Source of the DNA: Mimachlamys varia | Taxonomy: Eukaryota > Mollusca > Bivalvia > Pectinida > Pectinidae | Length of the DNA stretch: 64,000 bases | NCBI GenBank assembly: GCA_947623455.1 | Contig: OX392543.1 | Coordinates: 15,064,757 to 15,128,756 of the forward strand | Direction of reading: 5' to 3' | Shown here: in pieces, positions 50 to 58,600 of the stretch | Layout of the letters: every line of letters starts with the position of its first letter | Position numbering within the stretch: position 1 is the stretch's first letter | Made by a program: the position numbers and the translations under genes | Notes under the pieces: generated by a model | What the model was told of the DNA's origin: nothing | The model's database searches: none | What the model saw: the letters and a program-made list of their open reading frames with translations, nothing else

Positions 50-3000
50 CTGAAACACATATTGATTGATACATAAACTAGAAAAATCTGTAGGAATGCG
101 TGCGTCCTCATATGAAATTAGTTCTTCATGCTTATGATATATGCAAAGTTTGATGATAATTGCATCAGTATTTATTTAAATAAGCTTGTTACATTGCCAG
201 GGGACGGAACAGGACGGGACGGACATAGGTAACACTATATGACCCTATTTCATGGCGAGGGTATAAAAACAAATCCTGTAACATATTCAATGGCATATGA
301 AAACACAAAATCAGCTTTCAGTAATTTCCTTATTTTTAAACATATTTTTCTGACTCTTTCTTCTTCAAGGACAGGGATAAGCAGGATGTACAAACCTTTG
401 ACACGCAGTCCTTTTCTCGCTTCTCTATAATTGCCCACCAGTTGCTAGAGTTGCTTCCCTTATCAAAGTCTTCCTCTAACGTTGTTCTCAGCAGTACAAA
501 CTGTTAAGGCTAATGACATCAATGATGTTAATGTCTTTACACTGGATCAGTATGGTGAGGAGTTGAGTATGAACAAGCATTACATACTTGAACCATGTTT
601 TATTTAATAACTTAATAACCATATACTGGTATATCTGGTCTTGAATTCGGATCTAAGAAAGAAAATACTGTACCCTCGTTATACTTCCACCTTTCGTCCA
701 CAGCAGTTATGGAGGTATAACTATGGTGGCAATAGTATCGAATTATGAAAATTATGACCATGAATTAAATTGCATAATAGATTGCATTTCCAACATTTTA
801 TTAAAACAAGCTTACTATTATATCGTCATTTAGATCTACATTGGCACAAATTTATATCTGAAAATAGTTATTGATCTGCTTTTGCTGCATGCCATTCCAA
901 ATGGAACACTAAAGAGTTCCTCGATCTCCAAAAACAGAACAATATGGCGTTATCCTGGAGGGAAATATATAGTGATTCGGGATGTTTGTATTTTAAAGGG
1001 TGTGGCGGAAGGCGGTATGCAAAGGTGGGGAACTTAACGAGGAAATTATATAGGAAAGAAATCTGTTCTAAAAGTTTAGGTAGCGGTAGATTTGGGTGGC
1101 GATAGGTCGAGGGTACACTGTAGTTACAAACTGCTACAGTCGAACCTTGTTGTTTTGAAGGCGGCAGGACTGTAGGAAATCCTCGAATTATCAGAATATT
1201 CCAGTTAATTGAATTTGAATGTTAAATTAAATAAATGTTGTTTAATATGAAACATTTTATTCGTTGAGACTAAATGTTATACAAATCATTCACATTAAAC
1301 TGACTTGTTACCAGGTCTTTGAGTATACAAGATCATGATAAAAGGGTTGGAATTTTAAAATTAAAGATTAAAATTTAGAAACTTATGTTGATGAGAGATG
1401 GTGAATAAAAACACACATTACTATATATATCAGTAAAAACTTGAAAAATTAAAAACTAAGTCAAACACATCTTGATGTAAGGAAATACTCCTTTCATTTT
1501 ACTAACACCTGACTTAATAGCAGCTGTTGTAACTGCTGATATGATAACCATTATTTGGGAAAGTTAAGATCAGTCAGGATGTCACTTGTTGATACAGCAC
1601 AACTTCTCAGAACCATATCATCAGACCTACAACCTGGTAATCAACCAGGAACATACTTCCACATCAAAGAACCATATCGTCAGACTCTACGACCCGGGCA
1701 TCATCCAGGATCATACTTCTACATTAGAAAACCATATCATCAGACTCTACGACCCGGGCATCATCCAGGATCATACTTCTACATTAGAAAACCATATCAT
1801 CAGACTCTACGACCCGGGCATCAAACAGGATCATACTTCTACACCAGAGAACTGTTCCATAAGACTCTACGACCCGGAATCAACCAGAACAAATTTTAAA
1901 GGATATCTTCATCTGGTACAAGAGCTAGCACTTTTTTCTGTTTTTCCTCATCGCCCAAGAAGTCCTGCTTTTTGATGGCGTAGTCATGGAAGTTTTGCCG
2001 TACAATATCTATAGACTGTCTGATGGAGGGATGAATGGGGTCATCCAAGGTCACCTTCTTCGTCTGTTGTTCTCCTCCCTACAACAAATTATTTTCATAT
2101 ATAAATAATTTTCTTAATACCTGGTACATTCCTCTTTATATCATGTTGCATTTGTCAGAGAAAAACATGATATTAACAGGAATGTGATATAAGAATGACA
2201 TGTTTTTTCACTAAATCTAGAGCATTTCCAGTCTCCATAATCAAAGTAAGCTATTCAATGCATATAATAATGAAGATGTTTCAATCTATAGATAGCATTT
2301 TTCCATTAAAAAATCTTATTTTTTTTCATTTTCTTTTTTAATTTTCATTGCAATATTTGGAACAAGGTGTATCTGAAATCAATGGACATAACATAGTTTT
2401 CTGGATATTTTATGTAATTGGTTAAAAAACATATTAAGAGGAACTCACCTCAAAATCAATGATATTAACCAAATAAAAATATATGTACATAGATTATATA
2501 GAGGGAAACTGGTGATGGGGAAAAACATGATATAAAGAGGAATGTGATATTAACATATCAAAATAGATTGCTGTTTTTTTTTTTGTAAAAAAGTTATCTC
2601 ATTACTATAGAGTTTATTTCATCTTTTTATCCAAACAGGGTTCTCATTAAAAGCCGGTTGCCAGCATAAGTAGTCTGAACCTGCTATTTTTCAGAATTTT
2701 ATATATGTCAACATTACAGAATGTGAAAATTCAGCCAGCTATTCTTTCGAAGTCAACCAATTACTGCAAAACTTACTGAGAACACTGCCCCACATGCTGA
2801 ATTAGGATGTACAATTTCTATATCCTGCACCCTTGTGCATGACCTAGTCTTACTACACATAACTTTTACACCACGTTAAATTGACAAATATATTTGTTTC
2901 TTACAAAACTGAAATGTTTTATAATGACATTTTATCTCTATTTTATACCATTTAGAACACAACACATTCTGAAACTGTTTTATCTGACACATATACCTTT

Positions 3001-55600: not shown

Positions 55601-58600
55601 TTGGAGATTCAATAGGCAGGTAACTAAATATGGAACTTCCGGGGACAATTAGGGATTGGAGATTCAAAAGACAGGTAACTAAATATGGACCTTCCGGTGA
55701 CAATTAGGGATCGAAGATTCAATAGACAGGTAACTAAATATGGAACTTCCGGTGACATTTAGGGATTGGAGATTCAATAGACAGGTAACTAAATATGGAA
55801 CTTCCAGGGACAATTAGGGATTTGAGATTCAATAGACAGGTAACTTTATATGGACCTTCCGGTGACAATTAGGGATCGAAGATTCAATAGACAGGTAACT
55901 AAATATGGAACTTCCGGTGACAATTAGGGATTTGAGATTCAATAGACAGGTAACTAAATATGGAACTTCCAGGGACAATTAGGGATTTGAGATTCAATAG
56001 ACAGGTAACTTTATATGGACCTTCCGTTGACAATTAGGGATCGAAGATTCAATAGACAGGTAACTAAATATGGAACTTCCGGTGACAATTAGGGATTTGA
56101 GATTCAATAGACAGGTAAATATACATGGAATTTCCGGGGGCAATTAGGGATTGGAGATTCAATAGACAGGTAATTTTATATGGAACATCCTGGGACAATG
56201 AGGGATTTGAGATTCAATAGACAGGTAACTATATATACATATATAAACATGGTGCTTGGTCTACAGAAATTTAGATATTTTAGCAGTTATCATCTTTTGG
56301 CGATTTTTGTGCTAACATCATTTCGCAGAATTATAATGTCGCTAAGTACAGTTTCTGTATATTGCTTTCTGCAGTAATTATTGCGAGAGCACCAATTTAT
56401 CATTGAGTTTGTCTTCTTAAATTTTGTAATGGGCTATAATTTCAGTGCTTAAAATAAGTACATTCACAATATCTGTCATCTCTCAAAGGTTCCTGGTAGG
56501 TATACTGATGACTGGATGCTTTCTTATTTTCCTGAACCTCAAATCATCTTTCAAAGGTACCTTGTAGGTATAATGATGACTGACCTGTAAATAATGATCC
56601 CCTCCTTCCTTATTATTCCCCTATTATGGTTCTCACAGACAGGCTCTGACACCTGTATCTACATTAGGGTGGTCAGGTGGTGCATAGGATAGCACACTTG
56701 CCTTTCACCAAGGTGTCCGGGGTTCGATTCCTCAACCAGACGTGAAAAGGTATGGGGTCACCTGCCTGACCACGTGGGTTTTCTCCAGGTACTACGGTTT
56801 CCTCTCACAATACGACCCCTTATGCATCCAGGCCAACAAGAAAGATATAAGCTGGATAACTTGTTTCGTAGTTATTGAAAAAAAAATAAAATTATTTACA
56901 GTCCTGTGATCAAATAGGAATAACAGTAAAATATATGGAAAATGAAAAAAAAAAAAAATCAAATTGATTTAAAAAAAAAACAGCTTAAAATACATTATTA
57001 TTATGTTATTCATAGACGTAAGTTTGTTGAACATCATCAAGTACTTACATTTTACCTTTAAAATAGAACTGTAAAATTGTTAAACTTGCATGAGTTGTTT
57101 CCCTTTTTGTATGACTGTGAAAACAATATCGGGTAATGCTGGTGTTTCTTTATGTAAAAACATTCAGAAATTAATTTTCTCTCTGATTTTGCCTCAGATA
57201 TAAGTAAATAAAGTCAGTGAATCTGATATTGTAGAAACAAGCCTTGTTTGGTAAAAGTACTGAATGGAAAACAAGTTGTCAAGGTTACTGCTGGTTCCCA
57301 ACATTCATTAGCACTGACAGCCGATTCTCAGGTAAGTTACCAAATTCTATCAGAAACAATAGGTTGGGTTGATTACATTTAGATCACCTGATATATTTAC
57401 TTGTAAAATTAGGATTTCATGTAGCATATTAGATTATGTGTGTTATTTTACCAATGAAGATGAAGAATGGATGATTATAATCAGGTGGTTGTTAACGGCA
57501 GGTAAGCTTTAAAGCAGGTGTGATAGACAGGTAATCTATTTTAAGGTAGGTGTAATGAAATTTATAGACAGCTAGTGATAGATTTCAACAAGTCAGCTAT
57601 ATAGGACCGGCATAATGATTGTTAATGGAAGGTGGTAGCAATATAACTTAAGTTATTTAAGGTAAAATGTGATTGGAATTATTAACAGGTGGTAGCTATA
57701 GACAGGTGAGGTATACCTGGTATATTATTTGTGAAAGTAGGTAGCTATAGAAATGTGATCTTTATTTCTAAGGTAGAGATGTCTGTAACTTCCATTTATT
57801 TGTACTTTTATTAAGATTTTTTTTTCATTTTGAAGGTTTACAGCTGGGGATCCAATGTATCAAAGCAGCTCGGCCACAATGAAGAGAACTGCAAGCCTAC
57901 CAAACTGAAGGTACTTTATCAGCACAGCACTACCAGTATAAAACATATCACAATGAGGTTCCATTGAAATCTGTATACCTATCTTTGTAAGAGGGGGGGG
58001 GGGGGGGGATGCAGTGGCATATTTAACAAGATTTGGAAAACAGGTATCATTGATTAATCACAAGAATATAATAGCCTTAAATGCTAATTACTGCATAGAT
58101 TTAGTACATGGCATGATTTTATTTAGGAATGTTAATTAGATAACTATCTTGTTCTATTTGGTATATTATAGTTGAGTATGGTATAGTTTTTACCCCCAGA
58201 AAAGTATCATGATATCAAGTGTTGCGCCCCCACTTTGTAGGGTTTTTTTTGTGAGGGGAGCTATAAATTCTACTTCTTTCCTTGTTGATGGCTGTCGTCT
58301 GCCAAAAATGGCCAGACTTGGTATAGGAGATGCTGATTCTTTTCACAAAGTTCGAAAACCAAACAGGCAGCACAGTTTGTTGTGATTTTTATCAAGGAAT
58401 TATTACAGGCAAGGGGAACAGGGCAGGATTAACCATCAATCAGCTGAACGATGACCAGTCATAAAAAAATAAGTTATTAAATCATAACCGTATACACAAT
58501 GTATATCACTAATAGGAGCCTGCTAATAGTATACTTTTATTTATTTTCTAACAGGTGATGTCCGGTTGTCACATCTGGGACATAGCTGCCGGAGAATGCT

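What the first reader, a model, noticed from the sequence alone, without database searches (positions are those of the whole stretch)
3000..56232. Recurrent minisatellites seeded by exon 3' ends and their 5' splice sites
Four tandem arrays (3000-3126, 3893-4345, 9975-12108, 55312-56232) in two unrelated genes have as their first unit the last ~20-35 coding bases of an exon plus its GT donor and a short piece of intron. The copies run into the downstream intron in the sense orientation. About 18 donors and as many acceptors are visible here. Four donors (perhaps five) have founded arrays; no acceptor has. That asymmetry is unlikely to be chance and suggests a donor-associated duplication process. 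Candidate causes (inference): replication slippage at a shared AGGT-type motif, transcription-linked R-loops or nicking starting at the exon-intron junction, or selection for spare donors.
Basis: partly seen in the sequence, partly recalled or inferred. Interest (0 to 1): 0.93.

Follow-up and report, generated by a model that had tools for sequence, protein, structure and literature searches.

The report
Exon ends repeated into introns
In DNA that is probably from a scallop, the last 23 to 43 bases of four exons in two genes, each with its start-of-intron splice signal, have been copied 3 to 38 times in a row into the following intron; the same kind of array is described from lancelets, and the extra splice signals are likely ignored by the cell.

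Summary
I modelled two genes, PRIM1 (primase small subunit, minus strand) and ALS2 (alsin, plus strand), giving 17 donors and 17 acceptors. Four donors (PRIM1 exons 2, 4, 5; the ALS2 exon at 55234-55345) have their exon 3' end plus donor tandemly repeated into their own downstream intron (units 45, 41, 43, 55 bp). No acceptor does. The exon ends are conserved coding sequence in other animals, so the exon is the source. No copies lie elsewhere in the window. Arrays hit donors more often than random placement gives (post hoc P about 1e-4 or less). But donors versus acceptors, 4 of 17 against 0 of 17, is not significant alone (Fisher p = 0.10), so a donor-specific process is not shown. 'Spare donors' is disfavoured: all 45 copy donors tested would bring in a premature stop. 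The kind is known: amphioxus 'mirage' minisatellites. I infer small duplications across the donor, later expanded, tolerated because the genuine donor stays first; at an acceptor the same event would push the exon away from its branch point and be selected out. Genome-wide and sister-species tests could not be run (the genome tool did not complete). New member of a known kind, in what is probably a new phylum for it.

The parts
2993..3148 (-). Array A: 43-bp units, 4; genuine exonic end of PRIM1 exon 5 at 3126-3148, then donor GT at 3124-3125 and 3 copies in the intron
3892..4347 (-). Array B: 41-bp units, 11; genuine end of PRIM1 exon 4 from 4315 upward, donor GT at 4313-4314
11838..12107 (-). 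Array C1, exon-proximal block, 6 units (about 80% match by TRF), genuine end of PRIM1 exon 2 at 12075-12107, donor GT at 12073-12074
9971..11445 (-). Array C2, distal block of the same 45-bp unit, 33 full units (one partial row not counted), 92% match by TRF
55303..56236 (+). Array D: 55-bp units, 17, with a 3-unit higher-order pattern; genuine end of the ALS2 exon at 55303-55345, donor GT at 55346-55347
12075..12232 (-). PRIM1 exon 2 (ends ...YKIDIGAVFSHR)
4315..4388 (-). PRIM1 exon 4 (ends ...QIAIKIMDRALR; last codon split by the intron)
3126..3262 (-). PRIM1 exon 5 (ends ...AIAEYLSVVK)
55234..55345 (+). ALS2 exon (label A5 in my scripts; ends ...WGRNFRGQLGIGDSIDR), in an RCC1 repeat region
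1..14250 (-). PRIM1 gene, exons 14250-14133, 12232-12075, 8016-7910, 4388-4315, 3262-3126, 2078-1907, 493-396, 49-1 (last one cut by the window)
49886..63941 (+). ALS2 gene, exons 49886-50130, 51877-53189, 54038-54452, 55234-55345, 57235-57331, 57836-57910, 58555-58667, 62536-62599, 63356-63527, 63859-63941 (first coding exon upstream not settled; gene runs past the window)

Best explanation
These are exon-boundary minisatellites of the kind called 'mirages': at 4 of 17 donors a 41-55-bp stretch spanning an exon's 3' end and its 5' splice site is tandemly repeated into the downstream intron, most likely begun by one small tandem duplication across the donor, enlarged later probably by slippage or unequal exchange, and tolerated because splicing likely keeps using the genuine first donor. 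Shown: the exon is the source (its end is conserved coding sequence in other animals), the copies are in the sense orientation, they occur nowhere else in the window, and one array has a three-unit higher-order pattern. Inferred: how the first duplication arose, that the copies are not used in mRNA, and why acceptors are spared. For the last point I propose a geometry filter. A donor signal is compact and sits at the exon edge, so duplicating it leaves exon plus donor intact upstream and puts every copy in the intron. Duplicating a short stretch across an acceptor would put copies between the branch point/polypyrimidine tract and the true exon, so the copies would become exonic and selection would remove them unless the unit is long enough to carry the whole acceptor signal. 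The filter explains donor versus acceptor; it does not by itself explain why exon ends are hit more often than intron interiors.
For: Four arrays with the exon edge inside the first unit, 4 of 17 donors and 0 of 17 acceptors. The three PRIM1 exon ends align without gaps to Pecten maximus and 18 other bilaterian primases (19 homologues aligned of the 120 listed); the ALS2 one to two alsin-like proteins, one named, from Magallana gigas; no copy-encoded insertion appears there. Copies diverge 2-16% from the exon unit (arrays A, B, C1, D). Array D: mean identity is highest at lag 3 (0.930 against 0.875-0.902 at the other eight lags) and identity to the exon falls with distance (Spearman -0.60, p = 0.013); array B shows no such trend (0.23, p = 0.52). 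Use of a copy donor gives a premature stop in 45 of 45 tested (the pattern scan caught 45 against 67 full copies). Precedents: amphioxus Adh3 and globin mirages, whose RT-PCR is said to suggest regular splicing (PMC3087553, passages); the acceptor-side array in that paper (BflGb6) has 150-160-bp units. In potato a duplication crossing an acceptor carried branch site and tract along, and the copy became a new exon and intron (PMC4974935, abstract and passages). Opposed nicks 43 and 50 bp apart give tandem duplications in mouse cells (PMC8355091, passages), the size seen here.
Against: No transcript data: that the first donor is the one used is inferred from homology, and the orthologues compared may lack arrays. 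Many copy donors score as high as the genuine one on a recalled human donor matrix (22 of 27 scored C2 copies, 14 of 16 D, 2 of 4 C1, 1 of 10 B, 1 of 2 A), so silence of the copies is not explained by weak sites. The acceptor contrast is p = 0.10, so the filter explains an asymmetry that may be chance. The filter does not account for the excess over other DNA (about 32-53 fold). A donor-side amphioxus unit of 157 bp (BflGb9) shows that unit length alone does not separate the two sides; [quoted passage not shown] This passage made me lower the confidence from 0.60 to 0.57.
Confidence: 0.57

Rival explanations
1. Donors are mutational hot spots: transcription- or splicing-linked nicks, R-loops or polymerase pausing at the exon-intron junction produce about 45-bp tandem duplications there more often than elsewhere, and acceptors lack the process.
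For: Excess over other non-exonic DNA: expected 0.08-0.12 donor arrays against 4 seen (Poisson P 1.3e-6 to 8.9e-6, post hoc; background of 6 or 8 merged arrays of period 20 or more, shorter-period rows left out). Similar unit sizes of 41-55 bp in two unrelated genes. Opposed nicks 43 and 50 bp apart yield tandem duplications in mouse cells (PMC8355091, passages).
Against: Acceptor contrast not significant. Nothing here shows nicks or R-loops. Array donors are not distinctive: scores 8.2, 8.6, 3.2 and 8.5 bits against 3.5-12.6 for the other 12 GT donors, exon-end GC 0.40-0.47 against 0.38-0.55.
Confidence: 0.25
2. Generic tandem-repeat birth: scallop genomes are rich in tandem repeats and some arrays fall on donors by chance or because exon sequence seeds repeats better than AT-rich introns.
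For: TRF rows cover 16.7% of the window; tandem repeats are reported as 21.7% for the scallop A. pleuronectes (PMC10225492, passages).
Against: Random placement reaches 4 donor hits in 5 of 40,000 or 1 of 40,000 trials. Composition should favour exon starts as much as exon ends (expected, not measured).
Confidence: 0.12
3. Selection for spare donors keeps the copies.
For: GT is intact in 67 of 71 full units, 63 of 67 without the genuine ones; the donor 9-mer is among the best-conserved windows in D (3 of 55) and C1 (5 of 46).
Against: 45 of 45 tested copy donors would give a premature stop. The donor 9-mer is not specially conserved in A, B and C2 (13 of 43, 20 of 41, 21 of 45).
Confidence: 0.03
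4. The arrays are a dispersed satellite or introner that landed beside these exons.
For: None found.
Against: Each array repeats its own exon's conserved coding sequence; 0 of 69 unit hits lie outside the arrays (this window only).
Confidence: 0.02
5. Assembly artefact.
For: Tandem arrays are error-prone in assemblies; reads were not available.
Against: Units match their array consensus at 0.84-1.00 and form ordered variants, unlike repeated mis-joins of one read.
Confidence: 0.03

Closest known systems
'Mirage' minisatellites of amphioxus (Adh3, globins BflGb6 and BflGb9, PGBD5)
   Same: Tandem units spanning an exon-intron boundary, genuine exon at the array edge, copies with splice signals in the intron; the first PGBD5 repeats are said to abut 5' splice sites.
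   Different: Here a probable scallop; four donor-side arrays in two genes within 64 kb, none at acceptors. In amphioxus both sides are reported; length and somatic instability were reported there and are not testable here. The founding Adh paper (PMC117041) is not held; I know it only through PMC3087553.
[quoted passage not shown] potato RdRp, ATP2A1)
   Same: Local tandem duplication involving splice signals.
   Different: No sign of a new intron: the acceptors and next exon starts share nothing with the units, and orthologous proteins align without insertion at these points.
Dual-specific splice sites in tandem-repeat genes (human UBC; PMC10809524, passages)
   Same: Splice signal repeated in the units.
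   Different: There both intron ends lie in the repeat; here only the donor side is repeated and the copies are intronic.

Membership tests
Mirage minisatellite (amphioxus) | Tandem units that include an exon-intron boundary | tested here: met
Mirage minisatellite (amphioxus) | Unit lengths in the reported range (10-72 bp Adh3, 60 and 108 bp PGBD5, 150-160 bp globins) | tested here: met
   43, 41, 45, 55 bp against PMC3087553 and PMC3902484
Mirage minisatellite (amphioxus) | Normal splicing of the mRNA despite the copies | not testable with these tools
   No transcripts; orthologous proteins lack copy-encoded insertions, which is indirect
Mirage minisatellite (amphioxus) | Length polymorphism between haplotypes or somatic instability | not testable with these tools
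   One sequence only
Mirage minisatellite (amphioxus) | Both donor and acceptor boundaries can be involved | tested here: inconclusive
   Donor side 4 of 17, acceptor side 0 of 17, p = 0.10
[quoted passage not shown]
   Next exon starts and intron ends carry no unit homology
Introner-like or dispersed satellite | Copies at unrelated loci | tested here: inconclusive
   0 of 69 hits outside the arrays in this window; rest of the genome not searched

The most novel reading that the evidence does not exclude
In scallops the 5' splice junction is itself a hot spot for about 45-bp tandem duplications, through a transcription- or splicing-coupled break, so that donors keep shedding copies of exon ends into introns and are a main source of intronic minisatellites and intron growth.
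Probability: 0.22. Interest if true: 0.82.

Novelty: new member of a known kind. Interest (0 to 1): 0.5.

Why it matters
It takes a structure that I found described only from lancelets into what is probably a mollusc, at a density (4 of 17 donors in two genes) that makes a genome-wide count feasible, and it turns an open question (where do intron minisatellites start, and do splice junctions break or duplicate preferentially) into a simple test: founding units across donors against acceptors, split by unit length. It also matters practically: exon-like sequence repeated in introns can mislead gene prediction and read mapping.

Tried and rejected
Fifth donor: the 60-bp array in the PRIM1 AT-AC intron (1611-1887) starts 19 nt inside the intron and exon 6's end does not match that intron. 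An AGGT cluster in the ALS2 intron after 57331 (14 against 3.8 expected) is a decayed repeat of about 29 bp without exon homology above shuffles. Microhomology as the cause: array donors P2 and P5 show 10- and 7-bp direct repeats between exon and post-array intron, P4 and A5 only 5; the other 13 donors 4-8; not decisive, and the 10-bp case may be the stub of a further copy. AGGT as such: among the introns without exon arrays only A6 and P3 exceed shuffles (P below 0.05); P3 has similar counts on both strands (24 and 27) and holds an array that looks element-internal. Spare donors, dispersed satellite and intron birth: see rivals and membership. Rfam: 0 matches in the window.

Literature: ten answered searches, open-licence PMC papers only. 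In what I saw (listings, and passages of nine papers) no such array was described in a mollusc; this is not proof that none is in print. PMC6905558 (abalone intron minisatellite) and PMC12783039 (earthworm metallothionein intron repeats), passages only, do not describe exon-boundary units in what I saw. No paper was read whole.
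Full report
What is there. The window carries two genes with introns. On the minus strand, eight exons between 14250 and 1 encode the N-terminal 304 residues of DNA primase small subunit (Pfam DNA_primase_S, 120.8 bits against a cut-off of 26.8; best match Pecten maximus at 94% identity, 120 of 4035 matches listed). 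On the plus strand, ten exons between 49886 and 63941 encode an alsin (ALS2): RCC1 repeats pass their cut-offs, the Alsin_RLD model matches below its own (50.3 against 100 bits), and the name rests on homologues such as alsin of Magallana gigas. Exon edges come from homology and splice consensus, not transcripts; a possible first ALS2 exon at 49605-49656 did not fit the frame and is left out of the counts. This gives 17 donors and 17 acceptors; 16 of the 17 donors are GT, one is AT. The 94% match suggests a scallop close to but not identical with P. maximus; the species is not established.

The arrays. Each holds 23, 33, 33 or 43 bases of an exon at its upstream edge (TRF edges), and the unit runs through the donor into 11 to 20 bases of intron. 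The exon's last 50 bases match their own downstream intron with scores of 41-71, against shuffle maxima of 19-26, at exactly these four of 17 exon ends scanned. Junction-spanning queries over all 17 counted donors repeat the result: 4 of 17 donors; 0 of 17 acceptors against the upstream intron; 0 of 16 in each reversed direction; 0 of 16 with a long acceptor query. The last donor had only 44 bases of intron left in the window. The unit sequences are found nowhere else in the window (0 of 69 hits).

Direction. The repeated exon ends are old coding sequence. In an alignment of the window's primase with 19 of the 120 listed homologues, the three PRIM1 exon ends align without gaps; the ALS2 one aligns without gaps to two alsin-like proteins, one of them unnamed. 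So the exon gave rise to the copies, and these orthologues show no copy-encoded insertion.

Is it more than chance? Placing the genic arrays at random, with at most 60 exonic bases allowed, gives four or more donor overlaps in 5 of 40,000 trials for 8 arrays, or 1 of 40,000 for 5. Against the background density of the other arrays of period 20 or more (6, or 8 with the two that look element-internal), 0.08-0.12 would be expected at the 17 donors (Poisson P 1.3e-6 to 8.9e-6). These are post hoc values from a window chosen for the pattern.

What the copies look like. Of 71 full units, 67 keep GT (63 of 67 copies; one partial row left out). The donor 9-mer is no better conserved than the rest in arrays A, B and C2 (rank 13 of 43, 20 of 41, 21 of 45) and better in C1 and D (5 of 46, 3 of 55). 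Of the copies that could be scored, 40 of 59 have donors at least as strong as the first unit's on a recalled human matrix (for C2 the first copy served as reference). Yet splicing at any of the 45 copy donors tested would give a premature stop, so they are not useful spares. Array C has a diverged block next to the exon and a more uniform distal block (80% against 92% match); array D has a three-unit higher-order pattern and falls in similarity to the exon with distance, array B does not. These are ordinary marks of growth by slippage or unequal exchange.

How it most likely works. Step one, a small tandem duplication across the donor, is inferred. Its size fits duplications made at opposed nicks 43 and 50 bp apart in mouse cells (PMC8355091, passages), but other routes are open. 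Step two, expansion, is supported by the unit patterns. Step three, tolerance, is inferred: the genuine donor remains first and next to its exon. The same duplication at an acceptor would push the exon away from its branch point, and copies would be taken into the mRNA. The potato case, where a duplication crossing an acceptor made a new exon and intron (PMC4974935, abstract and passages), is what this predicts; the acceptor-side amphioxus globin array with 150-160-bp units (PMC3087553, passages) fits, but is one case, and the PGBD5 text leaves room for 60- and 108-bp repeats at 3' splice sites (PMC3902484, passages). This filter explains donor against acceptor. It does not explain why exon ends are hit more often than intron interiors; for that a hot spot at donors remains possible.

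What is known. Amphioxus mirages are the same kind of structure, and those of Adh3 and globin genes are said not to interfere with regular splicing (PMC3087553). Intron gain by tandem duplication and dual-specific repeat introns differ in how the intron ends relate to the repeat (PMC4974935, PMC10809524). In my ten answered literature searches I saw no mollusc example.

Limits. No genome-wide count, sister species, reads or transcripts could be brought in: the genome search did not complete (17 identical requests, listed under Tried and rejected).

Noticed in passing
494-1906: PRIM1 intron 6 looks like a U12-type AT-AC intron (label recalled): donor ATATCCTTT, CCTTAAC about 10 bases before an AC acceptor; it holds an unrelated 60-bp array at 1611-1887.
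   Followed up: partly
57332-57835: ALS2 intron with 14 sense-strand AGGT in 504 bp against 3.8 expected; a decayed repeat of about 29 bp without exon homology above shuffles.
   Followed up: partly
42324-42853: 41-bp array whose minus-strand units mostly carry the donor-like AAGTAAGATG; no gene model there, so an unseen non-coding exon cannot be excluded.
   Followed up: partly
4739-6307 and 59696-62101: 145- and 155-bp arrays next to GACG or CGTC microsatellites, probably internal to transposable elements (sequence reading only; not tested).
   Followed up: no
30889-32790: Minus-strand ORF of 633 aa with arrestin N and C domains.
   Followed up: partly
17850-19316: Broken reverse-transcriptase-like reading frames; two ORFs there (18101-18490, 18552-19316) gave no Pfam match at 0.001, so the label is from reading the sequence only.
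   Followed up: partly
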